Positions 6,001 through 27,920 of a DNA stretch of 29,207 nucleotides are shown piece by piece. The notes below the pieces were generated by a model. The model was not told where the DNA came from. It saw only the letters and a program-made list of their open reading frames with translations, and made no database searches. Origin of the DNA: a virus. The translations under genes were made by a program, and so were the position numbers. The DNA is taken from positions 1 through 29,207 of IMG/VR virus record IMGVR_UViG_3300020424_000019; one strand, 5' to 3'. Position 1 is the stretch's first letter, and each line of letters begins with the position of its first letter.

Positions 6001-9000
6001 TCTAATACGACAGACAAGAAGTCATCAATCAGCAGTTCTCCCATTCTGAGAATAGGATTTAGGACTGCAGAAATGTATGAACCAATATCAATTTCAGAAA
6101 TGGTAAGGATGGGGTACAGAACAGAGGTGAGGTAATCAACAATATTAATTGATAAATTCCTGAGAGGTTCTATCAGAACACTAGAAACCCAGGACACTAA
6201 ATCTACATCTCCCATACTGGTAATCGGGTCAACTAAAACTGCAGTCACCCAATCCCCAACATCAACCAGTATTCCGGTTATGGGCTGTAATATGCCAGCA
6301 AGGAAATCAGCACCTAGTATTTTCCCAACTAGTGCAGTGATTGGAGCAAGAACTCCATTTGGACTATTCCCAAATAAATAGTGGAGAGGATTTAAATCTA
6401 ATTTTAATATTGGAGTAAAGAGATATGTAAGAAAATCTCCTATACTCGTTGCCATATCTGGGATGAAAGAAAACAGACCATCTAAAAAGTCTTGGAAACT
6501 TGGTCCAGTAAAGATACCAAATAAATTTGTAAAGAAACTTTCTACGAATGTGACAAATTGACCATTGCCAACTATATCAAATAGTCCTTGAAAAAGAGCT
6601 TCAAGAAGTGCTGTAAAGTTACCGTCTGCACCTTTGAAAATTGAAAAGAACCCAGTAATAAACTCGTTGATAAATGTCAGGAAATTACCAGTCAATCTAA
6701 GAATTGGGTCCATTATGAATTTCAAAAATTCTGCAAATGTCCCAAATATTGTTTCTAAAAATTCTTTAATCCCATCTATTACTGCTTGTACCAAACTTCC
6801 CAAAATACCAGCAAGGTCGATACCAGTAAGATCTGGTCCTGTTCTTAACTTTACTGCCCCTGACGGATCTATATCCCCAATTTCTGGCCTAATACCACTC
6901 TGAAATCCTCTCCCTGTGTCAATTTGAGCTAAATCTTGTTCCAATGTAGTTGAACTAATTGCCTGCCCTCTCATTTCTGCATATCTAGCAAACTCAGCAC
7001 CAACATCAATATTCCCAAACTCTGCTATTTCTCTTAGCTCTATATCCTTGTCAATTTGGTCTATTTTATAGGACATAAAATCAATTAGCCCCATAAATTC
7101 AATAGTTCCTTCTCTATACTTATCAACAATTTGGTCAATAGAGGTAGCTAAATCAGAACCTGCAATTTTAAGATCAAATGCTCCTGCTTGAAGTTTTGCT
7201 GTAACCTCATCACCAAGCTCATCAACAAAGTCATCAGTTACACTAGTTATATCTGCAATGACCTTATTATAAATTTCTTGATATTTTGATGATGATTTAA
7301 ATATATCTTGGGATTGTTGAAGAAATTCTTTTGCAAATGCAGAAAATTCATCAAATTCTTCACTGTCCGCTCCTAATGCAGATGCAGCAGCATATAGCTC
7401 ATTATATTTTTCTGTTGCTGTTTCAAGTTTTACGGTTGGTGCAGCAAGATTCAGTGATGAGTTGACAATATCAAAAAGAACATCATCTATCTTTTGGAGT
7501 ACATCTCCAACACCAGATAAGGCCTCTTCAATATCTGTTAGTGCATCTCTTTCTGCCTCAAGAAGTGAAAGGCTCTTATATCCATCATCTACCGTTCCGG
7601 TTAAAAATCCTAAAATTCTGCCTAATATGTCAGTAAGTCCACCTATTAACTGGTCAAAAACAACAAATAAAGTTTGAAGAAATGCAGATAAATAAATAAT
7701 TGCTGGAGTAAGAGATTCAAATGCCCGTGAAAGAGGATCAAATATTTTGGCAAATGATTTAAAAAGCATCCTTCTAAAACCATTAAAAACCTTTAATAAT
7801 TGATATATAGGACTGAATACAGAACTTATTGATAATGCAAGATCTGCAATTCCATCTGCAACAACTTCAATACCTTTTTCATATCCTGACTGCTCTATTG
7901 CTCTCTGCATGGACTCATTTTCCATAACAGCATCTGTCAGATCTGAAAAATATTTTATTAAAATAAGATTAGTTACAGACATTCCTGCACTTACACCAGC
8001 ACCTACGGCAGCACCTGCTTCATCTATAGAGGCAGAAGCAAAAGAGGATGCTTTTTCACCAAAACTTTGTTCTGGGGCTGGGTCATAACCTGAAGGTCCA
8101 GTGTATTCTCTACTCCCAGGTGGTCTCGTTCCTCTTGGATCTAACGAAACTGGTCTTTCATATGCTTTATCAAACTCTTTAATAAATTGGCCTAATATGC
8201 TATTAGCACCGATTACATCATTGTAAAATTGTTTAAAGAAACTATCTGGCTTTTTAGACTCATTAGTTAATTTAATCTGTAATTTTAATGTTTCTTTTAG
8301 AAGATCTATTTGTTGTTCAAGTCTTTTAAGATCTGATTCTTCTAATCCTAAATCAAAAAGTTTGCTAGGATCTATTTTAAGAATTGTTGCTTCTATATCT
8401 CCAAAACTTTCATTGATTTGATTTATAGAATCCCTGCCAATGTTATTGTTTCTTGCAAACTGGATAATACTTTGATTGTATTGCTCAACGGCAGACATGA
8501 CTTCAGGGTTAACAAAATTAGAAAGAACCTCTCTGGATCTTCTTAAATTTGAAATCTTAACTTGTGTTAAAAGAAACTGATCACTGTAGTCAAAAATACC
8601 TTTTTCTAAGTCTAAGGCTATTCTCCTTTGTTCATTTAATTCTATTAATTGCTTTTTAGCAGCCTCTCTTTTATCAAATTGTTCAATTGCCTTATCAAGA
8701 GCACCCTTATCAAGTATATCTTCTTGTACTTTTGAAATATAAGACTCCCTCCTTAAGGAGCTTTCTAAATCAAATATCTCTAATCTTTTTCTGAGTCCAA
8801 CTACTCCGTTATTAATAAGATCGACCTCTTTTTCTGCAGATGCGACCTTATTTATTTCCTTAACTGTTTTAAGCCTTTCTTTTTCTGCAAAGTTTATGTC
8901 TTTGGTTACTTTCTTTTGTTCAAATATATTTTTTGAATAAAGCTCTTCTACTTGAAGTCTTGCAATTGAGTTTATATACCGATCAAAATCTATTTCACCA

Positions 9001-11765
9001 CTCTCAAACTCAGCCTCTATCCTTTTTCTGGCAAGATCAAAAATCTTACCCATTTTTTCTATTTCTATATTGTGAAGATCTACAGCACCCCTATGTTCTT
9101 CATTTATCTTTTTTAGTATTTCTAAATTTACCTGCTGCTCACTATGATACTTGAGTATCTCAATTCTTTGCTTTTCTATTTCTTTTGTTATTTCAATATT
9201 TTGATCAACTAAATCTTCATATATCTCATCAATAAGTTTGTATCCTTCCTGTTTTAGCTTCTCCATTGATCTAATTAAAGATGTATCTAAAACCTCACCA
9301 TCCTTAATTTCAACAACAGGTAAAATTCCTTTTGAAGCGTCACCTTTTCTTGCAACATTCTCTATTTCATTTACAGCATTTATAAGTGTCTCTTTAATTG
9401 TTTTTCTGACGGTATCGGGATTAAAGATAAGATCACCCAATACATTTCTTTCAAGGTTTACTGATTTTAGAGAATTAAAAATAACATCTGGTAATGATGC
9501 AAATTTGAAATCCTTGTCCTTAAACTCTCTATCTATCCCCTTGTTTAATAAATCTGCTATTTTAAATGCCACATCAGCAAGTTGTTCTATTTTAGGTGTA
9601 TCTCTTCTTACATCTAATATATTTTCTAGCCTAATACTGCTTACTTCTTTTACGACTTTCCTTCTGCTTTGTAAAACCTGTTCAAGTCTGCTTGTCTCAT
9701 TCCTTATTGATTGAAGCAAAATAGATTGTGCAACATCTTCAGTGTTACCCTTATTTATTTGTCCTTCCTGCTCCTCTTTTAATTTTCTTAATTCTTTTCT
9801 TCCTTCTATCAACTTATCAAGTCTTTCTTGAAGTCTTTTAGCAGTTTCAGGTGCAATCATATCAGAAAGACCTAAAAACAAATCTTTAAAGAACTCATTT
9901 ATTTTTAAACCAGGATCAAACCCCAAGAATTTCTTAAAAAAGTCACCTAATGCCTTATCAGCAGAAGGCCTATTTTTAATAGTTGGACCGACTTCCATTG
10001 CATTTGCTGCAGCAGTGCCAAAGTCTAAAAATATTTCAGCAATAAATTCTCTAAGTTTATTAAATTGTTTTTTTAGATTTTCTACACTAAAGAAACTAAA
10101 TTCTGTAGGTGCATTATTTAATTCTTCTAGTCTATTTTTAACATTTAGTATTTCTGCATCTATATCCTTTAACTCATTACTTGCTATTCTGATGTTATCA
10201 CTAAATGCATTAAACTTAGCTACAGATTTTTCAGTTGCCGTAGCATTCTCATCTAAATTATCATTAACGCTTTTAAGTACAGCCTCTGTTGTCCTTGCAT
10301 TGCTATTTACATTTATAAATCCTTTTGCTAAACGATCTGTCTCACCAAAAAATCTTGAAAAAACAACTCCACCTACTGTTGCTAACCCAATAACTGCCTT
10401 TAATGGACCAGAAAAAGCTAAAAGTGCAGCTTTAGCTGCAAGTAATCCTTTTATAAGTCCTGCAGTTCCAAGAATACCAATAAATCCTGCTATAAATGAT
10501 GTTATCTCTATAATATTATCAGCCAAAAATTGAAGAGCCTTACCTAAAGCATTAATTACTCCAGCATTTTCCAACTTCATAATAATTCTTTCCAATCTTT
10601 GGAAAGAAGATACCAATTTTTGATTAGCCTTTATGACCTCAGGATTTCCTGCTATAACAATCCCCAAAGCAGTTTTTATATTAGTAAATGCTTGAGTAAT
10701 TGTTACATCAATTTTTCTAAAGTCTTTATCAATTGTTTGCTGTGCCTCTTGAATTGCTGAAACCAAAACTTTTGTGGTAATTAGCCCTTCTGATGCAAAC
10801 TTACGAAGCTCACCTAGAGTGATTCCTAAAGATTTAGATATTTCTTGTGCAAGATTTGGAGCTAATTCCAAGATGGAACGAAGTTCATCACCTTGTAATC
10901 TACCTGAAGCTAAGGCCTGAGATAGCTGAACAATTGCATTTCTAGATTCTTCTGCAGTTGCTCCAGCAATTTGGAAGGATTTTGAGATTGTAGATACTAC
11001 ATTTGATAAAGCAATTGTGTCTTTTGCCAACTCTCTAGAATTTCTACCAACCCTAGAAAATAAATTACCAATAGTGAAAAGTGGTTGTCTTGTCTCTAAA
11101 GCAATCCTTTTTACTGATTCAAAGTTTGCCCTAAATACACTAGTATCTTGATTTACTAAACGAATTCTATTTTGGATTAAAATAAACTGATCTGTAATTC
11201 TTATCAAAGCTCCTATTAAGTTCACCTTGATAAATCCAATAACTGCTGCTTGTAACTGATAAAAAAGATATTCATTTCTCTTGATAATATCACCAAGACC
11301 CATCTGTTTCTTTTTTAAATCATCAGTCGCTTTTGTAGCCTTTGCAGTAGCTTTAGTTACTTGTGTTGTAGCAGTTGCATTTGTTACAGATTGCCTAGAA
11401 AGACTTTGCATTCTTTGCTGCAAGTTAGCAATATGACCCTGCTGTTTTTTCAGTGCTGTATTTAGTTTTTGTATTTGACTTTCTAGATTTTTGTTGTCTG
11501 TCCTTAGTTGATTGATTAGTTTCCTGTATTTGGACAGAGAACCCCCTGCCAGTTTTGTCATGATTTTTTCCATCTTGACAATCGGGGCTACTGCCTTGTT
11601 GACAGCTTGTTCAATACGATCTAAGGAGTTTTCTAGACTTTTGAGGGATTTATTGGACTTTTTGGAGGATTTCTCAACATTTTCAAGACGTTTGTCTAAA
11701 TTATTGAGGCCTTTTGCAGCTTCCTTGGTATCTACGAAGATATTCATCAAGGCACTATAGGACAT
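1..11765 (-). CDS. giant tail tape measure protein (C-terminus outside window)
   Basis: This ORF is open from the ATG at 11765 to the left edge, at least 3,921 residues with no stop. The tape measure protein sets tail length and is threaded inside the tail tube. Residues about 200-340 carry the classical tape-measure N-terminal domain (GRLQGDELRSI near 288, followed by LAQEISKSLGITLGELRKFA). Before it lies a coiled coil (about 10-140). A hydrophobic helix region sits at about 415-445, and charged coiled coils fill about 500-1150. A Gly/Ala-rich hydrophobic stretch is near 1250. Residues about 1780-2490 are degenerate 19-residue repeats and 2490-2820 are 40-residue repeats. Two copies of a GGEY(I/V)INK module lie near 2907 and 3577, and repeat-like units return near the edge. 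An AGAGG ribosome site precedes the start, two codons after the chaperone stop. Function is confident; the true length is unknown. Confidence 0.93.
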   Translation of the reverse strand, partial: MSYSALMNIFVDTKEAAKGLNNLDKRLENVEKSSKKSNKSLKSLENSLDRIEQAVNKAVAPIVKMEKIMTKLAGGSLSKYRKLINQLRTDNKNLESQIQKLNTALKKQQGHIANLQQRMQSLSRQSVTNATATTQVTKATAKATKATDDLKKKQMGLGDIIKRNEYLFYQLQAAVIGFIKVNLIGALIRITDQFILIQNRIRLVNQDTSVFRANFESVKRIALETRQPLFTIGNLFSRVGRNSRELAKDTIALSNVVSTISKSFQIAGATAEESRNAIVQLSQALASGRLQGDELRSILELAPNLAQEISKSLGITLGELRKFASEGLITTKVLVSAIQEAQQTIDKDFRKIDVTITQAFTNIKTALGIVIAGNPEVIKANQKLVSSFQRLERIIMKLENAGVINALGKALQFLADNIIEITSFIAGFIGILGTAGLIKGLLAAKAALLAFSGPLKAVIGLATVGGVVFSRFFGETDRLAKGFINVNSNARTTEAVLKSVNDNLDENATATEKSVAKFNAFSDNIRIASNELKDIDAEILNVKNRLEELNNAPTEFSFFSVENLKKQFNKLREFIAEIFLDFGTAAANAMEVGPTIKNRPSADKALGDFFKKFLGFDPGLKINEFFKDLFLGLSDMIAPETAKRLQERLDKLIEGRKELRKLKEEQEGQINKGNTEDVAQSILLQSIRNETSRLEQVLQSRRKVVKEVSSIRLENILDVRRDTPKIEQLADVAFKIADLLNKGIDREFKDKDFKFASLPDVIFNSLKSVNLERNVLGDLIFNPDTVRKTIKETLINAVNEIENVARKGDASKGILPVVEIKDGEVLDTSLIRSMEKLKQEGYKLIDEIYEDLVDQNIEITKEIEKQRIEILKYHSEQQVNLEILKKINEEHRGAVDLHNIEIEKMGKIFDLARKRIEAEFESGEIDFDRYINSIARLQVEELYSKNIFEQKKVTKDINFAEKERLKTVKEINKVASAEKEVDLINNGVVGLRKRLEIFDLESSLRRESYISKVQEDILDKGALDKAIEQFDKREAAKKQLIELNEQRRIALDLEKGIFDYSDQFLLTQVKISNLRRSREVLSNFVNPEVMSAVEQYNQSIIQFARNNNIGRDSINQINESFGDIEATILKIDPSKLFDLGLEESDLKRLEQQIDLLKETLKLQIKLTNESKKPDSFFKQFYNDVIGANSILGQFIKEFDKAYERPVSLDPRGTRPPGSREYTGPSGYDPAPEQSFGEKASSFASASIDEAGAAVGAGVSAGMSVTNLILIKYFSDLTDAVMENESMQRAIEQSGYEKGIEVVADGIADLALSISSVFSPIYQLLKVFNGFRRMLFKSFAKIFDPLSRAFESLTPAIIYLSAFLQTLFVVFDQLIGGLTDILGRILGFLTGTVDDGYKSLSLLEAERDALTDIEEALSGVGDVLQKIDDVLFDIVNSSLNLAAPTVKLETATEKYNELYAAASALGADSEEFDEFSAFAKEFLQQSQDIFKSSSKYQEIYNKVIADITSVTDDFVDELGDEVTAKLQAGAFDLKIAGSDLATSIDQIVDKYREGTIEFMGLIDFMSYKIDQIDKDIELREIAEFGNIDVGAEFARYAEMRGQAISSTTLEQDLAQIDTGRGFQSGIRPEIGDIDPSGAVKLRTGPDLTGIDLAGILGSLVQAVIDGIKEFLETIFGTFAEFLKFIMDPILRLTGNFLTFINEFITGFFSIFKGADGNFTALLEALFQGLFDIVGNGQFVTFVESFFTNLFGIFTGPSFQDFLDGLFSFIPDMATSIGDFLTYLFTPILKLDLNPLHYLFGNSPNGVLAPITALVGKILGADFLAGILQPITGILVDVGDWVTAVLVDPITSMGDVDLVSWVSSVLIEPLRNLSINIVDYLTSVLYPILTISEIDIGSYISAVLNPILRMGELLIDDFLSVVLEPITSITGITGDDLINKLTEPFSNLTTSFSQFLTGTDGNGGVLGPITKLTGGSFQDLLDAVFKPISDLGSLDIGDWTKSVITDPIGTLGQLNVADFIDEILKPISNIGSLDIADWTQNILIDPLQNLSIDATSFMDIILDPIKNITGINTDSIIDALLSPLDNLSKIDAATFIQKVLTDPLSTITEIDAGDFVSKITNPIVGLVVDYNDFLTELFKPIVGLDINVDEFLKKITDPLSKITGIDFDKFLDELFKPLAGLTVSIGQFITNIFQPLVDMAQIDPLKYLFGNSPTGIFGPIEKMADIDVAEFLNGILKPISEISVETVDWISSVIKEPLSNLGITVTNFLTELFKPISGLDVSVTTFLNNLFSFLSGFTIGTIDFLDRIFRPITGVAVTITQFISDLFDHIFSGTPKDLMDAAGEFMSEIFAGTPMNLATAAVNLIEDLFSGESMPLVDAALDLLGKAFDVSSEAINFVSYIRDLLSQAIKSFLPAEAIDFVAYIENLLDSVLTNVTSIDIGKIIEDAITGIEVFATEFLDTVLKPIIGLTVDYNEFIAKLLKPITDIAVDYNVFLQDFFGALFTGDAVGMGKAVEDLLNKLFTGVAQPLGDLANKLINIAFDMLNPMTLVDLYSDLIDMAFGSGTAKSLKDLAEDLITKAFEVTGAMALLDLAEDLLGMAFGGGQPLTFENLANTIIDYAFNLTSSAMSLSTLAGDLLDMAFGEGTAKSLTSLAEDLISKAFEVTGGMALATLAQDILNMAFGGGGQALTPQGLADALIDYAFNLTSSAMSLATLARDLLDMAFGSGTAQSLTKLAEDLVKMAFQATGGMALLTLAQDILGMAFGGGQAMTFQNLANSLINYAFNLTSGAMTLTTLASDLISKAFSGGSPYSLQSLGNSLYSAAFDFTTSSFDFVSKLSTAATNLLTGGSFDLGDWLGTQLGNLTATVFSGIPLLPNPFHQFLPQTPKYLIEFGEGGAVPEFSDGGMLKGPSHAQGGIKATVNGAPIEMEGGEYIINKRSVAALGLPALDFINNIGRMKTEDKPPELNKEFRPMFANGGYTNVYADAYSGAGFSENDINKRRLTDPNFVSQLANIQLLDFEAKTGGTISQILGGDVGVDLGVNLPRSLHEGFGSVTVPAGIQSIFQILGLSNPYPGGGSASYGGSGMFSSGGLVKTPADRSRANTLQNKSNSIPNLLLRIQEGSSESLLGGVKLEMGVVDGLTEGIFNFAYTPYKGFPPGIKEMIENLGNTVMDIASSVGEIISDIVIKINDAVNLLISNVHSVISTITNTVFNWVSTLFGLTGSTTTTTTKEISWDSVYEIGAEILDLFSGGAGDARIGAILKSSVSNEAVNEISDRVDRLFAFVTSNPSGIDLTNRQNGSSSSEISGGFMSEMKSWMDQYSYSQKNVEHELVILKKAIIGGIAVRNAFAGPDGYNQPYTYYAGNSLSYPYNHLSPTSGSYGSQDQKITYNRNPFHTAEDNRYTSYAGSGVKTATEFFGIPDTFGASHPSYSHAGYRYSGGRGYLGYSSLGSASIPSKTGKFSEIFGRKGSSLLPGGFTASNYRGDLRQKFYDSYSDFGSNRFDKYVFLHNVIDVARGDAYRRATGFPEYMPYDLMNFNPNKIKIGGPYGGDNVFRGALYSMYLERAKARGETGGKIVGPSHSMGGVDIELEGGEYVINKTSASHIGIKNLDNLNKIGIAKYQNGGVVARRDYNYDLVDAISNITGNRLTGGTDPEISSVYNSLTGSNLDPSLAATFTEIFGEPTEVFSGIDTTGVDVGSGGGIGGTGDTGGIGTGTINVTLTEAEYLNYLMKPLDNIIVGFENYLNYLTDPLPSSVEPISYLTHIFTPIIGMDIISDDDYLALLFLPVDNISVSSGAITSSFTSMIDNVSIDNTSINSSITDLFDSISISNESFNASLDDQLSTIFSVSLSKEEYIDLVFGPFSNVEGLDSSAFDSLFTGVENIDFSGFGDTLVTKVSTSFDPFLAKISEYTEAIAIPESV
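955..1040 (-). other. GGEYVINK module, copy 2 (tape measure residues about 3577-3602)
   Basis: The peptide GPSHSMGGVDIELEGGEYV is followed by INKTS. It matches copy 1 but lacks that copy's short insert. It is in frame with the ATG at 11765, which also supports one unbroken reading frame across the region. Confidence 0.7.
2950..3050 (-). other. GGEYIINK module, copy 1 (tape measure residues about 2905-2938)
   Basis: The peptide runs GPSHAQGGI, then a short insert (KATVNGAPIEM), then EGGEYIINKRS. It is Gly-rich and occurs again about 670 residues later in the same protein. I recognise this motif as common in the C-terminal parts of tape measure and other virion proteins of environmental phages. 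Its function is not known to me. Confidence 0.7.
3290..4290 (-). repeat. tandem 40-residue repeats inside the tape measure gene
   Basis: About 120-base units alternate between two types, giving a super-period of about 243-246 bases. One type reads like GGGQ-LTFQNLANSLINYAFNLTS, the other like GSGTAQSLTKLAEDL. Both share an LAxDLLxMAFG core. The shared CCAAAAGCCAT-like string recurs near 3487, 3604, 3730, 3850, 3973 and 4093. An 18-base string near 3637 recurs at about 3883. The high DNA identity suggests recent unit duplication. Confidence 0.85.
4810..6420 (-). repeat. degenerate 19-residue (about 57-base) repeats in the tape measure gene
   Basis: The protein repeats a pattern like I-D-x3-F-L-x3-x-x-P-(L/I)-x-x-(I/L)-x-x-I about every 19 residues, for example ITDPLSKITGIDFDKFLDEL followed by FKPLAGL. 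On DNA the proline/glycine turn recurs near 5299, 5352, 5405, 5463, 5520, 5581, 5637, 5693, 5749 and 5810, a spacing of 53-61 bases. Tape measure proteins are known to carry periodic aromatic or hydrophobic repeats. A Pro-punctuated 19-residue version this long is notable. Confidence 0.75.
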
Positions 11766-17351: not shown

Positions 17352-18647
17352 TCAACCACCAGTAGAAGGAACTCGTACACCAAGTCTTCCATCAACTGCG
17401 GCAGCACCTACTAAACAATCCACAGAAATTAGATCACGTTTCCGTAGATGATCGTAAGTTTGCATTACACGGAGACTCATTCCGTTATAATTGACAGTTG
17501 AAGAACTTGTGCCTGGTCCCATTGGATTAGGCTGTGGAACAAATACCATCTGGAATGCACTTGGATGGAAAGCAGCACCAACTGTATAGCTTAGAACAGA
17601 ACTACTACCACCAATTACAGAAATCACATTATCTGCGCTAACAACTTTATTGATTCCTGTATATCCACCACTACTTGCATCAACAGCATCAGCAACAATG
17701 CCATACAATCCAGGAGTGATCTGTACATTAACCACTCCAGTTGTAATGGTCGCTGCACTTGTAACAGCATGATCACGAATCACACCATCATCATAAGTAA
17801 TTCTTAGTGTATCACCTGCAGCAATCTGATCATTTTGATTAGCACCAGAAGTAACAATTGATCCTGTTTGAGCTAATTGCTTAACAGCTACTGTTGTTGC
17901 ACCTTCTGATAAATTAGCATTGGCTGCACCAACTAGATCAATGTTTGATTTAGCAAGAGCATTACCCACTGTATGAATTGGGAGAGTTTGGGACATCAAT
18001 AGATCCATTCCCATGAATCGTCCTAGTGAGGCTTCTTCAACTGGAGAAGTTGCTGCTCCACGGAAGTTGGCCCGTACAAACTCTTCAATACTAAATAGTG
18101 CTGATTGCATTGCAGGAGAAACAATCATTTTCCTGTTTGTCATAGGAATTTTTTGATTGTTCATTTTTTCAACAATTGCAGCCATATCTGCTAGTGAATT
18201 CGGTGCAGCAAAATCAGCTTCTGCTAAACCACCAAGATCAACCATTTTTGAAAGTGCATATTCATCAATCTTTTGTGACAATGCACTCATTGCTGGTCGA
18301 AGTAGTCGCTCGTTAAAATCATCAACTGCGAATGCAAGTTCCTTGGATGATACTTCAAAGGAAACATCAAAATGCTTTTCAATTTGTAGATTAACACTTG
18401 TCTCTACAGCATCCTGAATTTTTACGGAGGTGGCTGATCCAGCAGAATCAGAAAATGTATCAACACCAAAAAAAGCTGGTCTTCGGATACGAATTGTATC
18501 ACCAACTTTTGCACCAGTGTATTCTGCAGTTGCAGAACTAGACATCACTTGAGGTGCAACAATGTTGTTTTCAAGAATTAGGAGGGCTTCCCGTGCAATT
18601 ACATCGGGGGTAAGAAAGGTATTTTGAACACCAAAACTAGTTGCCAT
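17352..18647 (-). CDS. major capsid protein, P22 coat-like (HK97 fold)
   Basis: The 431-residue protein is about the length of P22 coat. Its N-terminus contains NTFLTPDVIAREALLILENN at 9-28, followed by AEYTGAKVGDTIRIRRP at 41-57, the recognisable start of the P22 coat family. Residues about 90-225 form the spine and axial part (KHFDVSFEVSSKELAFAVDD). Residues about 226-345 are beta-rich (GDTLRITYDDGVIRDHAV), at the place where P22 coat carries its inserted domain. The C-terminus has FQMVFVPQPNPMGPGTSSS and MSLRVMQTYDHLRKRDLISV. The ATG has AAGGAA five bases upstream. It has its own promoter and a structured leader, and the scaffold gene precedes it, as expected. Confidence 0.93.
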   Translation of the reverse strand: MATSFGVQNTFLTPDVIAREALLILENNIVAPQVMSSSATAEYTGAKVGDTIRIRRPAFFGVDTFSDSAGSATSVKIQDAVETSVNLQIEKHFDVSFEVSSKELAFAVDDFNERLLRPAMSALSQKIDEYALSKMVDLGGLAEADFAAPNSLADMAAIVEKMNNQKIPMTNRKMIVSPAMQSALFSIEEFVRANFRGAATSPVEEASLGRFMGMDLLMSQTLPIHTVGNALAKSNIDLVGAANANLSEGATTVAVKQLAQTGSIVTSGANQNDQIAAGDTLRITYDDGVIRDHAVTSAATITTGVVNVQITPGLYGIVADAVDASSGGYTGINKVVSADNVISVIGGSSSVLSYTVGAAFHPSAFQMVFVPQPNPMGPGTSSSTVNYNGMSLRVMQTYDHLRKRDLISVDCLVGAAAVDGRLGVRVPSTGG

Positions 18648-22593: not shown

Positions 22594-23826
22594 CTAAATT
22601 CCTGTTATTTGTGTGATGGCTGCTTCTTGCTTATTAACTGGGTATAAGTATTCAATTAGATAACCCATACTGTCTGTTATGTGAGAAAGATCATTCTCTC
22701 CACCCTTTTCAGGTAGGTTTGTTCCTCTTTTGTAAGAATGTCTTTCTAGTGCATGTATTGCTCTCTTACATCTTTTGTTGATTAATACTTTTCTGCTACC
22801 ATCTGCAGAACAAAGTGCAGAATTTACTGCATTGATACGATCCCTTATCAAAGGATGTTTCCTCCTAAATTTACACTTAAATCCATAACTTTGCAAAATA
22901 GAAAGGTCAGTCCTTCCACCAGCAGAAGTCCTTGACTGAACACAAGCTGGATCTGGATAAATCGTAATTTCATCACTAGGATACCTGCAAAGTATTTCTT
23001 CTGCCATTTCATCGGTATTAGAACCAAATATTTCAATTTCATCTACCAAGAAAAGTGTACCATCATTTCTGTCAATTTGAAATACTGTTGCAGTCATAGG
23101 ATCTATATTAAAATCCATGCCAATCATTACAGGTTCGTTTTCTTCGTAAGAACGATCAACTACATTTTCATCAAAATCAAACCCATAGTATACTAATCCT
23201 GTATATGTAACAAATTCTGCCTCATACTCTTGTTCAAATGTTCTTTGATCTAGATTTCTTCTTGCTGCTTCAACTTCTTCGGGAGGAACATTACCACCTT
23301 CCAGTGTAGTAAATTGCCAAGATTCCCAATCCTCTTCTTCATCATTTCTTGCTGTATTCCAAATATCGTAAAACCAATTTCTCCCAGATGGACTAGAAAT
23401 AAATAAGGCCCCACCTTGTTTATCGGATAAGGTGGGACGTAAGACTTCTGTCCAAACCCTCTCATCTAGATAGGCAGACTCATCCATTACTAAATAATCC
23501 AATCCTATTCCTCTTAAAGAGTCTGGATTATTGGCCCCTTTCAAAGAAATGACAGATCCATTCACAAGATGTGCTTGCAAGGCCACTTCATGAAAGGATT
23601 TAGCCCATCCAAAACGCTGTAACTTTTCTTTAAGGTAGGACCACATAATATTCTTTGCAGCAGAATAAGTAGTTGTCACATACCAAACTTGTCTATATGG
23701 ATGTCTTGCAACTCTTGCCATTAAGGATAAAGAGAGGAAGCTCTTACCAAATCTTCTTCCTGCAGCAACGACCTTAAATCTAGCATTGGATTCAGCAATG
23801 TCCCGTTGGGCTGGAGTTAGTGGCAC
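22594..23826 (-). CDS. terL: terminase large subunit (packaging ATPase/nuclease)
   Basis: The protein drives ATP-powered packaging and cuts DNA. Numbered from a possible TTG at 23838: Walker A AGRRFGKS at 26-33, the tyrosine-rich VWYVTTTYSAAKN near 51-63, Walker B YLVMDES with acidic pair D119/E120, and coupling motif SSP at 148-150. The RNase H-like nuclease has acidic residues in GMDFNIDP (D242), YPDPA (D296) and ENDLSHITDSMGY (D383/D389). All expected catalytic motifs are present, so it should be active. I prefer GTG 23826 as start because it overlaps the small-subunit stop (TAGTG) with GGAAG upstream; the TTG start adds four residues. Confidence 0.93.
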   Translation of the reverse strand: MPLTPAQRDIAESNARFKVVAAGRRFGKSFLSLSLMARVARHPYRQVWYVTTTYSAAKNIMWSYLKEKLQRFGWAKSFHEVALQAHLVNGSVISLKGANNPDSLRGIGLDYLVMDESAYLDERVWTEVLRPTLSDKQGGALFISSPSGRNWFYDIWNTARNDEEEDWESWQFTTLEGGNVPPEEVEAARRNLDQRTFEQEYEAEFVTYTGLVYYGFDFDENVVDRSYEENEPVMIGMDFNIDPMTATVFQIDRNDGTLFLVDEIEIFGSNTDEMAEEILCRYPSDEITIYPDPACVQSRTSAGGRTDLSILQSYGFKCKFRRKHPLIRDRINAVNSALCSADGSRKVLINKRCKRAIHALERHSYKRGTNLPEKGGENDLSHITDSMGYLIEYLYPVNKQEAAITQITGI

Positions 23827-24335
23827 TAATCTTCCCAAGGAAGAACAGTCATATCTTCTTTAGTCTCTTCATCCATTCCATAGGCCTTTCTTTTCCCAAG
23901 GTATCCTATTGATAATGTTTCCATTGTAATCTTACAACACTTTAAATATTGAAAGACAATATCAGACTCTTCCTTGTCTAAAATAATCTCATTAGTGTTT
24001 TTGTCCCTATTTTTGACAAGTCTTGTATGAAATCCAATAGTCATGGCCCTTATCCTTTCTGAATCCTGAATAAAATTTTCAGTCTCTCTCAAGGACCTTT
24101 CCACTCTGTCAGAAACAACAACTTGTTTTTCCCTATCTGCTGCTCTCTGTATTACCTCATCCTTTCTAATACCCTTTTCCCAAGCATTCCTTTTTACATG
24201 GTAGCGAACGGCATTTTCAGAAACATCTATCTCTTCAGCAATGGATTTAATCGTTTCTCCTGCTTCTACCCTGGCCTTTATTTTACCCAGATCTTCTAAA
24301 GTTAATTTTTTCTGAAAATTATTTTCCTCTTCCAA
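23826..24335 (-). CDS. terS: terminase small subunit
   Basis: The 169-residue protein lies immediately before the large subunit. Residues about 10-50 form a helix-turn-helix (LGKIKARVEAGETIKSIAEE then IDVSENAVRYHVKRNAWEKG), the DNA-recognition part that selects packaging sites. Residues 60-150 are helical and charged, fitting the central oligomerisation core, and the C-terminus (KEDMTVLPWED) would contact the large subunit. The start is a TTG directly after the ParB-like stop (TAATTG). It is made convincing by GGAGG five bases upstream, located in the ParB-like gene's last codons, so translation of the two genes is coupled. Confidence 0.85.
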   Translation of the reverse strand: MEEENNFQKKLTLEDLGKIKARVEAGETIKSIAEEIDVSENAVRYHVKRNAWEKGIRKDEVIQRAADREKQVVVSDRVERSLRETENFIQDSERIRAMTIGFHTRLVKNRDKNTNEIILDKEESDIVFQYLKCCKITMETLSIGYLGKRKAYGMDEETKEDMTVLPWED

Positions 24336-25247
24336 TTATTCCTCCATTAATGCTTCTTCTTTTTGACACATTTCAATTACTTTTTCTGCTGCCTTATTAC
24401 CTAAAACCTTCTTGACAAGGACAGCCTCTTCACCAGTAAAAGTTAAATAGAGTCTAAAAATATCATTATCCTTACGCAAGGCCTGTCTTTCTTCTGCAGT
24501 CTTTGCTTCTGCAAGTTGTTTTTCTCTTTCTCTCTTTCTTTCCACTGCAGCAATCGAAGAGGCAGCAGCCACTGTTCCGGCCCCACCACTTTCTATCTCA
24601 TGAGTCTCCGTAGTAGTCTCAATGTCATTTTGGACATCTACCTCTCTGTCATCAGAAGGCTCCCAGGCCTCGGACCAATCCTCTCCTGCAAGTGCATCTG
24701 GTGCAGGGATGTCTTCCAGTAACTTATTTAGTTCAACATCATCTAACATTAAAGAGTCTTGTGCCCAATCCAAGGCCCCCAGTTTTTCAAGATCCCTTAA
24801 AAGTTCTGCTGTTAGGTCAATATCTTCTGATCCTCTGGCCCGATTGTGACGAAGAGTTGCAATTTTGGCCTGTTCTTCTGTCATCGGAGTGATCACAACA
24901 GGAATCTCATCATAACCAAGGCTATGGGCCGCTCTCCAACGGTGTTCTCCATCAACAATCTTTACTTGGTTGTGTTCATTACGGATACATACAATTGGTT
25001 GGGTAAATCCATCTTCTGACATGGACTTCAACAATAGTTCAAAGTCATGATCGCTTTGTCGATTAGGATTCCATTCATTTGGGATCACATCATTTACACC
25101 TACATATTCAATATCTAAAGTAGATAAGGCCTTGTTCTTCTTTTCGACAGTTCGTTTACCCTTCTTTTTTACTTTTTCTGTAACTCTATGTTGAGTCTCT
25201 GCAGGTGTAGTGTTTACTGCAATTTGTTCTTCTGGTTTTTCCACCAT
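24336..25247 (-). CDS. ParB/Srx-type nuclease-domain protein (IbrB-like)
   Basis: The 303-residue protein has a basic N-terminal tail (1-42) and a ParB N-terminal domain at about 46-165. Within it are VIPNEWNPNRQSDHDFELLL, the QPIV strand, and the hallmark VDGEHRWRAAHSLGYDEIPV at 98-117. The usual GERR is GEHR, as often seen in phage and DGQHR-type members. The C-terminal half is acidic, then a charged helix ERKREREKQLAEAKTAEERQ. No ParB DNA-binding HTH is apparent, so partition is unlikely. ParB-fold domains bind or hydrolyse nucleotides or nick DNA. Its neighbour is a PAPS-reductase-like gene, the same pairing as IbrA/IbrB, and it is translationally coupled to terS. Confidence 0.82.
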   Translation of the reverse strand: MVEKPEEQIAVNTTPAETQHRVTEKVKKKGKRTVEKKNKALSTLDIEYVGVNDVIPNEWNPNRQSDHDFELLLKSMSEDGFTQPIVCIRNEHNQVKIVDGEHRWRAAHSLGYDEIPVVITPMTEEQAKIATLRHNRARGSEDIDLTAELLRDLEKLGALDWAQDSLMLDDVELNKLLEDIPAPDALAGEDWSEAWEPSDDREVDVQNDIETTTETHEIESGGAGTVAAASSIAAVERKREREKQLAEAKTAEERQALRKDNDIFRLYLTFTGEEAVLVKKVLGNKAAEKVIEMCQKEEALMEE

Positions 25248-25260
25248 ATGTATCCATTAG

Positions 25261-26400
25261 TTAAAAAGTAGGTTTACCTTGCCATTTTCCACTGCCTGGT
25301 CTGAAAAACTCAGGCTCCACCATTGGCAAAAAGGAGGCCTTTGATGAAAATGGGTCCCCATTGTATAATGATAAGGCCATTTTCTTCCAAGAAGCAATAT
25401 TCCCAGTGCAACTCATGCAAGGATGAACTTCTGGAAATTCAGTTGTAGAGTGTTTTGCATGTCTCCTCATATATACTTCTTTCGTTTTTAGAGATCTTTC
25501 TCTAATCCAATCCGGTGCCTCATCAATGCAAGTTCTGTGAAAACACTCTTCCCATGTTTCACCATACTTTCTTGTTGGTGTCAAGGCATGCATACCAAAC
25601 TTTACACCTGTTCTAATCCCCTGAAGTCTTTGGCAAGCTCTGTCAAACCACTTAGGCCATGCAACTGATGCCATTTTTAGGGTTTCTATACCATAAGGAT
25701 TCATTGTTGGTGGCCCAATCCTCATAACGGGTAAGGTTATTCTATTTCTCAACATGACATCGTAGGCCCGATTGTAATCCAGATTCAATTCTTTTATTAA
25801 TTTCCACACATCCTTGTTTGTCCAATCGTAAATTGGACGAATATTCGCAACCTTATACCTATTAGGTTTTGTTATATATCCACCAGAAGTAAATAATCCA
25901 TACAAACGGTGTCTGGATTCGTCCGTTCTTAGACCAATTGCAGCGTAGAGCTTTTGTCCTGCTTCAATTGGGAAACGGTCAGGATGAGTCATGGCTTCGA
26001 TGTGTTGCTCTTTAATGTTTTGTGCCCAACTCGGAGGCTCTCTCATCCAATCACTAGGACTTAAACTTGGGTCCATTACCCAAAAGTAAGGGTTGGCCCT
26101 GTCATATACATTAATAATCGGTTGATTAGCAACAAGCCATGTCATCCGAACTTCTGGTCTTTGAGCAGTTCTCTCTGCAAACTCATAAGTACCAGGAAAC
26201 ATCAACTCTTCATCACGCAAGACAACATCTACTGGCAAATTCCCTGTCATTTGAGCAGCCATTATACAGACTTCCAACAAGACCGTGGAGTCCTTACCTG
26301 TAGAAAAAGAGACCACAATACGGTGACCTTCTTCGTAAATTGTAGCAACTCGGTTGATTGCCTCATCCAGTACAGTGCTGCCTGTTTTTTTCCTTGGCAT
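25261..26400 (-). CDS. PAPS reductase-like PP-loop protein (IbrA/DndC-like)
   Basis: The 379-residue protein has the PP-loop ATP pyrophosphatase motif SFSTGKDST at 31-39 and VDVVLRDEELMFPGTYEF in the next strand. The family's AIGLRTDESRHR lies at about 154-165 and NIRPIYDWTNKDVWKLIKEL at 186-205. The C-terminal part has paired cysteines (C287/C291 and HPCMSC at 326-331) that could hold a metal or Fe-S cluster. Family members activate a substrate as an adenylate or act on sulfur, in PAPS reduction, tRNA thiolation or DNA phosphorothioation (DndC). True assimilatory PAPS reductase is shorter and ends differently. The gene sits between the methyltransferase and ParB-like genes with gaps of 13-17 bases, indicating a cassette. 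The actual substrate is unknown. Confidence 0.85.
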   Translation of the reverse strand: MPRKKTGSTVLDEAINRVATIYEEGHRIVVSFSTGKDSTVLLEVCIMAAQMTGNLPVDVVLRDEELMFPGTYEFAERTAQRPEVRMTWLVANQPIINVYDRANPYFWVMDPSLSPSDWMREPPSWAQNIKEQHIEAMTHPDRFPIEAGQKLYAAIGLRTDESRHRLYGLFTSGGYITKPNRYKVANIRPIYDWTNKDVWKLIKELNLDYNRAYDVMLRNRITLPVMRIGPPTMNPYGIETLKMASVAWPKWFDRACQRLQGIRTGVKFGMHALTPTRKYGETWEECFHRTCIDEAPDWIRERSLKTKEVYMRRHAKHSTTEFPEVHPCMSCTGNIASWKKMALSLYNGDPFSSKASFLPMVEPEFFRPGSGKWQGKPTF

Positions 26401-26417
26401 TTTTGGCCCCGTAAAAA

Positions 26418-27221
26418 TTACAACTTTTTGACAATAGTTAGATAATAAGAGCAGTCAGCTTTTTCAGGACCTCCTATTCTTGGGTTGTAGTTCATCAAAC
26501 TCTGTTCAATGTCTTCTTGAATTCTGTTGATGTGGTACGATTTTAAGTCTTCTTCATGATTGCCTACATTCTTACGGACATACCCCTCTTTATCTGGCTT
26601 TGAAAAAGGGTAGATTCTATGGTCCTCCGAATTTGCAAGGTCCCTTGTCCAAGTCCAAAGAACAGATCCCTCCACCATAGTGTATGGGTAAGTGTCTACT
26701 TTTATTAGTTTGTGAACACTGGTCTCTCTTTCCTCGGGCTTCAACGTCCCATAGGTCATCACTAGCAATGTGCCCCCTTTTTTGACACAGGACCAGAGAT
26801 TTTTAATGGCCTTTTTCATACTATATCTACTTAGACAATTTAAGCCCGCATTGAGGCTCAACACTAGATCGAACTTTTCAGAAAAGAGCAGGTGGTCATC
26901 TAAAAAACTCATTTGGTAGAGCCGATTTGTAACCTCATCATTCTGATCACGATACTGAGGCCATTTCGTCTTAAACTCCAAGAGCATATTTTTAGAAATA
27001 TCATATCCCACATAATTGTGGACATCCCAATTTAGTCCATAACAATAGTCCATAAATAGTCCTGTACCACAGCCCGCATCAAGCACAGCCCCTTTTACAA
27101 GACCTTCATCGTATAGAAAATTAAAAAGCACATGATCTTCTGCCCGCATAACGGGCAAGACTGTATTTTTGTCATATTTACTAGCAACCTTATCGTAATA
27201 TTCTTTTGGGCTCATCGGCAT
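26418..27221 (-). CDS. class I SAM-dependent methyltransferase
   Basis: The 267-residue protein begins YYDKVASKYDKNT, a common UbiE-type opening. Motif I is AVLDAGCGTGLF at 45-56, the acidic strand II end is YVGYDISKN at 70-78, and motif IV region is FDLVLSLNAGLNCLS at 117-131, followed by VKKGGTLLVMTYG. There is no DPPY/NPPY or PC motif of classical DNA adenine or cytosine methylases, so a small-molecule, RNA or protein target is more likely than standard DNA methylation. It is first in the leftward series, about 40 bases from a candidate promoter. An ATG at 27215 is an alternative start; neither has a strong ribosome site. Confidence 0.85.
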   Translation of the reverse strand: MPMSPKEYYDKVASKYDKNTVLPVMRAEDHVLFNFLYDEGLVKGAVLDAGCGTGLFMDYCYGLNWDVHNYVGYDISKNMLLEFKTKWPQYRDQNDEVTNRLYQMSFLDDHLLFSEKFDLVLSLNAGLNCLSRYSMKKAIKNLWSCVKKGGTLLVMTYGTLKPEERETSVHKLIKVDTYPYTMVEGSVLWTWTRDLANSEDHRIYPFSKPDKEGYVRKNVGNHEEDLKSYHINRIQEDIEQSLMNYNPRIGGPEKADCSYYLTIVKKL

Positions 27222-27262
27222 CTACATCTCATACTGTCAGTTTATAACAAATCTCTACCTGG

Positions 27263-27291
27263 ACTTTAACTTGTTTGTGGAAACCTGTAAA
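27263..27291 (-). promoter_or_regulatory. candidate leftward promoter for the late gene series
   Basis: On the minus strand TTTACA (27291-27286) and TAAAGT (27268-27263) are 17 bases apart and would start transcription near 27256, about 35 bases before the methyltransferase ATG. Each hexamer matches the sigma70 consensus at four of six bases, so this is a weak or activated promoter at best. Confidence 0.4.
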
Positions 27292-27353
27292 GCACAAAGA
27301 CTTTTTCATCAAAAACCCCCCATTTTCGGCAATCTCTTTGTAGTTTCTTTCAC

Positions 27354-27389
27354 AAAACGAAAGACTTTTTGGCAAAAACGAAAGACTTT
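27354..27389. repeat. direct repeat AAAACGAAAGACTTT, period 21
   Basis: Two perfect 15-base copies lie at 27354-27368 and 27375-27389, one start every 21 bases (two DNA turns). An imperfect copy (CACAAAGACTTTTTC) is at 27293-27307, just upstream of the leftward promoter candidate. Spacing on one face of the helix suggests binding sites for a regulator of the late genes. Confidence 0.6.
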
Positions 27390-27479
27390 CTCAAACACTT
27401 TGACAATCAAAACCCTTCCGATCCGATTCCGATTCATCGTTTCGGACTGAACTATCCTAAACTTAGCCTCAAAACGGGC

Positions 27480-27506
27480 AGAGCCTGCGGCTCTCTTTTA
27501 TTTCTT
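27480..27506 (+). terminator. rho-independent terminator, rightward
   Basis: AGAGCC-TGC-GGCTCT gives a six-base stem with a three-base loop, followed by CTTTTATTTCTT. It terminates rightward transcription, yet no rightward gene lies to its left. It may end a short untranslated RNA or block antisense readthrough into the promoter region. Confidence 0.6.
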
Positions 27507-27522
27507 GCCATGAAATGGCCTC

Positions 27523-27549
27523 TTGGTTCCCTTGGTTCCTGTTGGTTCC
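27523..27549. repeat. three TTGGTTCC direct repeats
   Basis: Copies at 27523-27530, 27532-27539 and 27542-27549 start 9 and 10 bases apart, nearly one helical turn. A short GCCAT-GAA-ATGGC inverted repeat lies just to the left (27507-27519). Confidence 0.6.
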
Positions 27550-27699
27550 ATGATAAATGAGCTAAGACCGTATTGAGTCTAGCCTTTTTTAGGTGAGCCT
27601 TGCTTATTTTTGGAGGGGTGCTTTTGAAATAGTGCTGGCTATGGGGGTTGGTGGGGGTCGATGTATTAAGGTAATGCATAGGGTGTACCACCCACACCC

Positions 27700-27760
27700 A
27701 GGGGTAAATATTACCTACCTTCTAGGAAATTATTACCTAGTACCAGGAAAATATTACCTA
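27700..27760. repeat. three near-palindromic operator/iteron sites ending ATTACCTA
   Basis: Sites at 27700-27717, 27724-27739 and 27745-27760 end 22 and 21 bases apart. They fit a palindromic core like AGGWAATATTACCT; the middle one is bounded by CTAGG and CCTAG. A half-site AAGGTAAT is at 27668-27675. They lie 45-100 bases upstream of the rightward promoter, as expected for repressor or activator operators, or for origin iterons. Confidence 0.65.
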
Positions 27761-27803
27761 CCAATCCTTGTAATACGTTTGTAATACAAACAAAATATCT
27801 ATT

Positions 27804-27831
27804 TTGTTGAATGGTACGCTAATTGTATTAT
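27804..27831 (+). promoter_or_regulatory. rightward promoter for the small-gene set
   Basis: TTGTTG (27804-27809) and TATTAT (27826-27831) are 16 bases apart. A perfect TATAAT follows at 27833-27838 but has no -35 at normal spacing. Transcription would start around 27838-27845, giving a leader of about 80 bases that folds into two hairpins before the first gene. Confidence 0.5.
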
Positions 27832-27838
27832 CTATAAT

Positions 27839-27854
27839 AACCCAAAAAAGGGTT
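27839..27854 (+). other. AACCC/GGGTT hairpin at the rightward transcript start
   Basis: AACCC-AAAAAA-GGGTT forms a five-base stem with an all-A loop at or near the predicted 5' end of the rightward mRNA. It is followed by AAAAG, not a T-run, so it is not a terminator. Confidence 0.45.
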
Positions 27855-27858
27855 AAAA

Positions 27859-27901
27859 GACACAAAAACGGGTAGCATGGGGCCACCCGAATAATTGTGT
27901 C
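27859..27901 (+). other. two-tier stem in the leader of the first rightward gene
   Basis: GACACAA (27859-27865) pairs with TTGTGTC (27895-27901), and inside it CGGGT (27869-27873) pairs with ACCCG (27885-27889). The apical loop contains GGGGCCA, a string also found in the intergenic hairpin modules of the next two genes. The structure ends 19 bases before the ATG, next to the AAGG ribosome site, so it may control translation. Confidence 0.55.
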
Positions 27902-27920
27902 CAAAATTTAAGGTGCAAAA

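What the first reader, a model, noticed from the sequence alone, without database searches (positions are those of the whole stretch)
24336..27221. Methyltransferase + PAPS-reductase-like + ParB-like cassette coupled to the terminase genes
A PP-loop PAPS-reductase-like protein next to a ParB-domain protein is the IbrA/IbrB arrangement known from E. coli prophages. It also echoes DndC (PP-loop) and DndB (DGQHR) of DNA phosphorothioation; the ParB-like protein here reads DGEHR. A SAM methyltransferase is added in front and terS is translationally coupled behind. A sulfur- and methyl-based modification of DNA, nucleotide or RNA that protects or marks phage DNA at packaging is possible, as is a transcriptional role like Ibr. 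No cysteine desulfurase, DndD or DndE is in the window, so a complete Dnd system is not present here.
Basis: partly seen in the sequence, partly recalled or inferred. Interest (0 to 1): 0.72.

Follow-up and report, generated by a model that had tools for sequence, protein, structure and literature searches.

The report
Terminase-linked phage DNA-modification gene cassette
Just ahead of its DNA-packaging genes this bacterial virus carries three genes (a methyltransferase, an ATP-dependent "activating" enzyme and a ParB-like DNA-binding switch protein) that stay together in dozens of very different viruses, which suggests an unstudied way of chemically marking viral DNA, although the mark itself has not been seen.

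Summary
The three genes are real, lie where stated and form one operon with terS-terL-portal. The unit is conserved. Of 85 distinct loci found with the PAPS-reductase-like gene alone, the methyltransferase lies just upstream in 69 of 72 with enough sequence, the ParB-like gene downstream in 77 of 78, and a terminase large subunit within 6.5 kb in 51 of 58. This holds beside four terminase groups with no detectable sequence similarity to one another. Optional cassette genes are a glucosyltransferase family, DNA methyltransferases, an acetyltransferase, a cupin-like protein and a small protein. One contig fuses the glucosyltransferase to ParB; Microbacterium phage Leaf fuses the small protein to the methyltransferase.

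The PP-loop protein is related to IbrA but is a separate clade without the DUF3440 tail. It lacks the CysH catalytic motif. Only one cysteine is nearly invariant, and IbrA-type homologues lack it, so sulfur chemistry (Dnd, PAPS reduction) is not supported. The methyltransferase lacks DNA-amino-MTase motifs.

Best model: a DNA hypermodification cassette. The PP-loop enzyme adenylates a group on DNA, ParB presents the DNA, and the methyltransferase and variable transferases decorate it. No modification was measured; the chemistry is unknown. New variant of a known kind: solid observation, inferred mechanism.

The parts
26418..27221 (-). Class I SAM-dependent methyltransferase (267 aa), first gene of the leftward late operon; no DNA-amino-MTase motif
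   Evidence: Pfam Methyltransf_25 E=1.5e-11; homologue just upstream of the PP-loop gene in 69/72 loci; 0 of 85 homologues carry [DNS]PP[YFW]; nearest solved structures are small-molecule/O-/N-methyltransferases
25261..26400 (-). PAPS-reductase-like PP-loop enzyme (379 aa), IbrA-related; PP-loop SFSTGKDS, GLRxxESxxR, RPIYDW
   Evidence: Pfam PAPS_reduct 6.6e-15; PHROG 2302 E=5e-50; AlphaFold model pLDDT 79.6, PP-loop core matches FAD synthase (Z 16.1), ATP sulfurylase and APS/PAPS reductases; no DUF3440
24336..25247 (-). ParB-like (IbrB-type) protein (303 aa) with VDGEHRWR and HNRARGSED motifs and an extra C-terminal region
   Evidence: Pfam ParB_N 6.8e-15; profile of this family matches E. 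coli IbrB at E=7e-34; N-domain folds like Noc/ParB/SerK/sulfiredoxin
23826..24335 (-). terS (helix-turn-helix), directly abutting the ParB stop codon
   Evidence: synteny with terL; HTH_38 E=3.9e-6; TAA-TTG junction
22594..23838 (-). terminase large subunit
   Evidence: Terminase_6N 5.6e-15 and Terminase_6C 9.1e-6
27222..27920 (.). Divergent intergenic region in front of the cassette, with three 21-22-bp-spaced direct repeats at 27703-27762; likely control region of the operon
   Evidence: weak promoter-like sites not above shuffles

Best explanation
A phage DNA hypermodification cassette at the head of the late operon. Proposed steps: (1) the ParB-like protein, an NTP-binding switch, engages phage DNA and recruits the enzymes; (2) the PAPS-reductase-like PP-loop enzyme uses ATP to adenylate a group on a base (or the backbone), so that a nucleophile can be joined; (3) the methyltransferase adds a methyl group to the new or precursor group; (4) in many relatives a glucosyltransferase, acetyltransferase or cupin-like protein, and separate DNA methyltransferases, add further decoration. 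Expression with terS/terL would mark replicated DNA before or during packaging and so hide it from host nucleases. Shown here: gene order, conservation, families, fold of the PP-loop core, fusions. Inferred: that DNA is the substrate and every chemical step. The nucleophile (amine, sulfur or other) is unknown.
For: Conserved unit across loci selected only by the PP-loop gene: MT upstream 69/72, ParB downstream 77/78, terL within 6.5 kb 51/58, beside four terL groups with no BLAST similarity and different Pfam families (Terminase_6 versus TerL_ATPase/TerL_nuclease) and several terS families. Optional neighbours belong to nucleic-acid decoration: a family in which 14/14 tested members match PHROG 854 'glucosyltransferase', present in 25 of 85 loci, and N6/N4 DNA methyltransferases with the DPPW-type motif (21/22) in 20 of 85. 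Single loci carry a C5 DNA methyltransferase or a GNAT acetyltransferase. Fusions: glucosyltransferase-ParB in L065; small c4 domain fused to the methyltransferase in Microbacterium phage Leaf, whose genome runs GT-family gene, acetyltransferase, c4-MT, PP-loop enzyme, then across the linear ends ParB x3, DNA-binding protein, terminase. Isolated phages in the other PP-loop clade also place PP-loop + ParB beside the terminase, some with a methyltransferase. Precedent: in Synechococcus phage S-B43 a SAM-derived handle on cytosine is activated by an AMP-forming amide ligase of the asparagine-synthetase type, and such phage clusters often carry ParB-domain genes (PMC12783734). DpdB, a ParB-like ATPase, acts in 7-deazaguanine insertion (PMC12839542).
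Against: No modified nucleoside has been measured, and none can be inferred from sequence. The methyltransferase does not look like a DNA methyltransferase and could act on a small molecule, RNA or protein. No precursor-making enzyme (e.g. thymidylate-synthase homologue, DpdA, CmoA) was recognised in the window, which is a fragment. The window itself has none of the optional decorating genes. Many IbrA/IbrB pairs elsewhere sit away from the terminase, without a methyltransferase. 'Glucosyltransferase' for PHROG 854 is a library name, not a tested activity.
Confidence: 0.5

Rival explanations
1. Ibr-like regulator: the PP-loop/ParB pair switches on late (packaging and structural) genes, as IbrA/IbrB were reported to co-activate prophage gene expression; the methyltransferase modulates it.
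For: ParB is IbrB-type (profile match to E. coli phage IbrB E=7e-34). The cassette is the first element of the late operon and sits behind a repeat-bearing control region.
Against: The PP-loop clade is split from the IbrA-type set (support 1.0, long branch) and lacks DUF3440. ParB has no recognised HTH in Pfam. Regulation does not explain recurrent glucosyltransferase, acetyltransferase and DNA methyltransferase neighbours. The Ibr phenotype could itself be indirect.
Confidence: 0.15
2. Packaging control: the ParB-like clamp loads near the terS/pac region and, with the enzymes, marks or protects the packaging site or times terminase cutting.
For: Adjacency to terS-terL persists with unrelated terminases; likely translational coupling of ParB to terS.
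Against: Adjacency can be explained by late co-expression or by a tolerated insertion spot. Related pairs exist far from the terminase. No packaging site was located, since the window is a fragment.
Confidence: 0.12
3. Modification of a small molecule, tRNA or virion protein rather than DNA; ParB is an NTPase sensor.
For: The methyltransferase's nearest solved relatives are small-molecule O-/N-methyltransferases and an mRNA-cap methyltransferase; PP-loop enzymes commonly act on tRNA or metabolites; the fold core is closest to FAD synthase.
Against: ParB domains and DNA methyltransferases recur in the cassette and ParB is fused to the glucosyltransferase once, which points to DNA.
Confidence: 0.13
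4. Dnd/Ssp-like DNA phosphorothioation with a host cysteine desulfurase.
For: Shared PP-loop family; weak DndC and BrxP/SspD profile hits (BrxP E=3.5e-11, DndC 3.5e-5); one cysteine (C291) 97.5% conserved in this clade.
Against: DndC match limited to the PP-loop; no DndD/DndE/SspC recognised in the conserved unit; the CxxC pair is lost in many members and C291 is absent from IbrA-type homologues.
Confidence: 0.06
5. Auxiliary metabolic cysH: boosts host sulfate assimilation.
For: This is how databases and several papers name such genes (PHROG 2302/424; PMC10434257; PMC6145125).
Against: No catalytic ECGxH motif in any of 86 homologues; CysH models score far below cut-off (34.9 versus 154 bits); almost always paired with ParB.
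Confidence: 0.02

Closest known systems
IbrA/IbrB pair of E. coli and other (pro)phages
   Same: PP-loop PAPS-reductase-family protein next to a ParB-domain protein with VDGxHR and NRARG motifs; shared PP-loop, GxRxxES and PI-DW motifs
   Different: Separate PP-loop clade without DUF3440, larger ParB, extra methyltransferase, fixed place before terS/terL, no other link to regulation
PP-loop/ParB clusters of mycobacteriophage B1, Arthrobacter phage Shrooms, Microbacterium phage Leaf, Bacillus phage 031MP002
   Same: Also beside the terminase; Leaf has MT, GT homologue and ParB in the same order across the linear genome ends
   Different: PP-loop proteins belong to the other side of the deep split; Philly lacks the methyltransferase; Shrooms and 031MP002 use a shorter, different methyltransferase (PHROG 11826); several have two or three ParB genes
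CmoA-CmoX-CmoY cytosine hypermodification of Synechococcus phage S-B43
   Same: Logic: SAM-dependent enzyme plus AMP-forming activation, ParB-domain genes often in the cluster (PMC12783734)
   Different: Different enzyme families: no C5-MTase or asparagine-synthetase-type ligase in the core here; chemistry unknown
Dpd (7-deazaguanine) and Dnd (phosphorothioate) systems
   Same: ParB-superfamily partner (DpdB, DndB) with a DNA-modifying enzyme; DndC is a PP-loop PAPS-reductase-like protein (PMC12839542 and PMC10853773)
   Different: No DpdA, cysteine desulfurase, DndD or DndE recognised; conserved redox cysteines missing
FAD synthase PAPS-like domain / ATP sulfurylase CysD / APS reductase
   Same: Fold of the PP-loop core, residues 4-243 (Z 13-16)
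   Different: Catalytic context differs; a shared fold says nothing about substrate

Membership tests
IbrA (PAPS-reductase-like co-activator) | PAPS_reduct domain with PP-loop | tested here: met
   Pfam 6.6e-15; motifs aligned with E. coli phage IbrA
IbrA (PAPS-reductase-like co-activator) | C-terminal DUF3440 | tested here: not met
   E. coli and Streptococcus phage IbrA score 4.7e-33 and 1.8e-52; window protein has no hit at E<=1
IbrA (PAPS-reductase-like co-activator) | Falls in the IbrA clade | tested here: not met
   Separate clade, split support 1.0 (only 16 outgroup sequences)
IbrB / ParB-superfamily | ParB N-domain with GxHR phosphate motif and NRARG motif, gene next to IbrA-like | tested here: met
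ParABS partition protein | ParA gene next door and central HTH | tested here: not met
   Pfam finds only ParB_N in the protein; the flanking genes in the window are PP-loop and terS, not ParA
PAPS/APS reductase CysH | Catalytic ECG[ILM]H motif | tested here: not met
   0 of 86 homologues
Dnd/Ssp phosphorothioation | DndC-like protein with DndD/E or SspB/C partners | tested here: not met
   PADLOC hits weak; DndC only over the PP-loop; the conserved unit holds MT, PP-loop, ParB and terminase only. The rest of the phage genome is unseen
Dnd/Ssp phosphorothioation | Phosphorothioate in DNA | not testable with these tools
   needs mass spectrometry
DNA-amino methyltransferase (MT gene) | (D/N/S)PP(Y/F/W) motif IV | tested here: not met
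   0 of 85 MT homologues, against 21 of 22 of the separate N6/N4-type neighbour
Phage DNA hypermodification cassette | Co-conserved DNA-acting and group-transfer enzymes in one operon | tested here: met
Phage DNA hypermodification cassette | Cassette-dependent modified nucleoside in virion DNA | not testable with these tools
   needs nucleoside mass spectrometry of virion DNA

The most novel reading that the evidence does not exclude
A widespread, undescribed phage DNA hypermodification system with new base chemistry: a ParB-family NTP switch feeds DNA to an IbrA-related PP-loop adenylating enzyme, and a dedicated methyltransferase plus interchangeable transferases finish the adduct, coupled to terminase expression across unrelated packaging modules.
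Probability: 0.35. Interest if true: 0.85.

Novelty: new variant of a known kind. Interest (0 to 1): 0.62.

Why it matters
Genes of this family are commonly labelled phage 'PAPS reductase' and read as sulfur-metabolism genes. Here the label does not hold: the catalytic motif is absent and the gene comes with ParB, a methyltransferase and often a glucosyltransferase, beside the terminase. If the unit modifies DNA, it would add a widespread class of anti-restriction DNA chemistry, give a biochemical meaning to IbrA/IbrB, and offer new DNA-modifying enzymes. Cultured phages of laboratory hosts (Microbacterium phage Leaf, Arthrobacter phage Shrooms, M. smegmatis B1 phages) make it directly testable.

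Tried and rejected
Direct homologue search for the window methyltransferase: no match in the phage collection and no pattern match in viral contigs; it evolves much faster than its neighbours (35-51% against 78-89% identity in close relatives), so it was found by synteny and profile instead. Dnd membership: rejected as above. CysH/AMG: rejected. ParB C-terminal region as a relic of the second ParB of actinophages: hhalign probability 12%, not claimed. c4 small protein: no Pfam or PHROG match. Cupin-like gene: only sub-threshold Pfam hits and no solved-structure match. Promoter scan: not above shuffles. GT family in solved structures: no credible match. ParB AlphaFold model is of low confidence outside the N-domain (pLDDT 64.6), so nothing is built on it. 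Literature: the phage DNA-modification survey of Iyer et al. 2013 is not held; no held paper found describes the MT-PP-loop-ParB-terS unit, but subscription papers and preprints were not searched.
Full report
What is there. On the minus strand the window carries, in order of transcription, a class I SAM methyltransferase (26418-27221), a PAPS-reductase-family PP-loop protein (25261-26400), a ParB-domain protein (24336-25247), terS (23826-24335), terL (22594-23838) and a portal gene. Gaps are 17 and 13 nt. The ParB stop is followed directly by the terS TTG, with GGAGGAA just before. The cassette opens the leftward structural operon; the region in front of it (27222-27920) is divergent and holds three direct repeats spaced 21-22 nt. 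The record is an IMG/VR virus contig of 29,207 bases.

Is the unit conserved? Loci were collected with the PP-loop protein only, so the neighbours were not selected for. The first scan gave 14 contigs; wherever there was enough upstream sequence the methyltransferase was found, including in two GC-rich contigs whose PP-loop protein is only 45-50% identical. A profile scan gave 80 viral loci, and 5 more came from bacterial genome contigs. Among 85 distinct loci the methyltransferase lies just upstream in 69 of 72 with at least 750 bp of upstream sequence, and ends within 60 bp of the PP-loop start in 57. ParB lies downstream in 77 of 78, and terL within 6.5 kb in 51 of 58. These counts are not independent events: at 80% identity the PP-loop set collapses to 37 sequences. 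They do, however, span four terL groups without BLAST similarity, two of them confirmed by Pfam as different terminase families, and several terS families, one of which Pfam names terminase small subunit. So common descent of one packaging module does not explain the linkage.

What else joins the cassette. Between the PP-loop gene and ParB, or just after ParB, many relatives carry extra genes: a small protein 'c4' (39 of 85), a family that matches PHROG 854 'glucosyltransferase' in 14 of 14 tested members (25 of 85), and an N6/N4-type DNA methyltransferase (20 of 85). Single loci have a C5 DNA methyltransferase or a GNAT acetyltransferase, and four have a cupin-like gene. One contig (L065) encodes the glucosyltransferase fused to ParB in one 493-aa frame; as a single metagenomic case it needs confirmation. 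Microbacterium phage Leaf, whose PP-loop protein lies on the other side of the deep split, has the c4 domain fused to the methyltransferase, a homologue of the same glucosyltransferase family and an acetyltransferase. Its gene order, read across the linear genome ends, is MT, PP-loop, ParB, ParB, ParB, DNA-binding protein, terminase. Bacillus phage 031MP002, Arthrobacter phage Shrooms, mycobacteriophage Philly and phage PJN03 also place the PP-loop/ParB genes at the terminase. Other IbrA/IbrB pairs do not.

The PP-loop enzyme. Residues 4-243 of the AlphaFold model (pLDDT 79.6) have the PAPS-reductase/FAD-synthase/ATP-sulfurylase core (FAD synthase Z 16.1, rmsd 3.2 A over 177 residues). Invariant residues include the PP-loop SxGKDS, GxRxxES and RP-x-x-D. 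The catalytic ECGxH of CysH is absent from all 86 sequences. The C-terminal CxxC occurs in about 69% of full-length members, and only C291 is nearly invariant (78 of 80). In the alignment with 16 phage homologues of IbrA type, C291 and CxxC are absent, while the PP-loop, GxRxxES and DW motifs are kept. The common denominator is therefore ATP-dependent activation (adenylation), not redox or cysteine-relay sulfur chemistry; sulfur transfer within this clade through C291 is not excluded. The E. coli and Streptococcus phage IbrA proteins carry DUF3440 and the window protein does not.

The ParB-like protein. It keeps the Arg of the phosphate motif (VDGEHRWR) and the NRARG box shared with IbrB. Its N-domain resembles Noc, ParB, SerK and sulfiredoxin structures. 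A survey found that such domains bind CTP, ATP or GTP and are often fused to methyltransferases in phages (PMC12704722). One contig (L008, seen again as L026) carries an intein-like insertion inside the conserved EDGF/TQP stretch of ParB.

The methyltransferase. It has the SAM motif VLDAGCGTG but none of 85 homologues has the DNA-amino-MTase motif, and its nearest solved structures are small-molecule O-/N-methyltransferases and an mRNA-cap enzyme. It is the fastest-evolving member.

Mechanism. The most economical reading is a DNA hypermodification operon: ParB engages DNA with an NTP-driven switch, the PP-loop enzyme adenylates a group so that something can be joined, the methyltransferase modifies the product, and variable transferases decorate it further. 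The best precedent is the S-B43 system, where a SAM-derived carboxymethyl on cytosine is adenylated and joined to glycine, and where ParB-domain genes are frequent in the gene clusters (PMC12783734). The Dpd system also uses a ParB-like ATPase for base insertion (PMC12839542). That DNA is the substrate is inferred from the company kept (ParB, DNA methyltransferases, terminase), not shown.

Comparison and novelty. It works like, and is related to, IbrA/IbrB, but it is not an IbrA by the DUF3440 and clade tests. It is not Dnd, not CysH and not ParABS. No held paper found describes the four-gene unit. I file it as a new variant of a known kind: IbrAB-related PP-loop/ParB pairs, and phage DNA hypermodification cassettes. 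The conservation is strong evidence of a real functional unit; the chemistry is open.

Noticed in passing
L008 (= L026) 2648-4369; L008 4906-7188; L009 4292-6574: ParB gene of L008 is 573 aa with an intein-like insertion (starts CVAAHTP, ends AMHN before T) in the conserved EDGF/TQP stretch; terL of L008 and L009 is 760 aa, about 346 aa longer than relatives, also suggesting an insertion.
   Followed up: partly
window 27703-27762: Three direct repeats of about 17 nt (GGtAAATATTACCTAcc) spaced 21-22 nt in the divergent region ahead of the cassette; possible operator or binding-site array.
   Followed up: partly
window 26418-27221: The methyltransferase is 35-51% identical to its counterpart in contigs whose PP-loop and ParB proteins are 78-89% identical; unusually fast divergence for a conserved cassette member.
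   Followed up: no
L013, L049-L051, L054-L056, L076-L079, L085: In a marine-type group two opposite-strand genes (about 160 and 345 aa) sit between ParB and terS; from their sequence they look like a gamma-glutamylcyclotransferase-like and an amidoligase-like protein. Identity not tested.
   Followed up: no
L107 9763-10987 (Fusobacterium phage phiFN37): Besides the IbrA/IbrB-like pair, a second ParB-like gene lies directly before a gene annotated queuine tRNA-ribosyltransferase, a further ParB/DNA-modification pairing.
   Followed up: no
L020, L016, L109, L108: Actinophage, Bacillus and Rhizobium clusters carry two or more ParB genes: one IbrB-type and another with a different C-terminal domain (pattern Y-LxFxxxxQ...FLxxLK).
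   Followed up: partly
window 3-11765: Tape-measure-like gene longer than 3,900 aa, cut by the contig end, in a genome with a P22-type coat protein gene (17352-18647).
   Followed up: no
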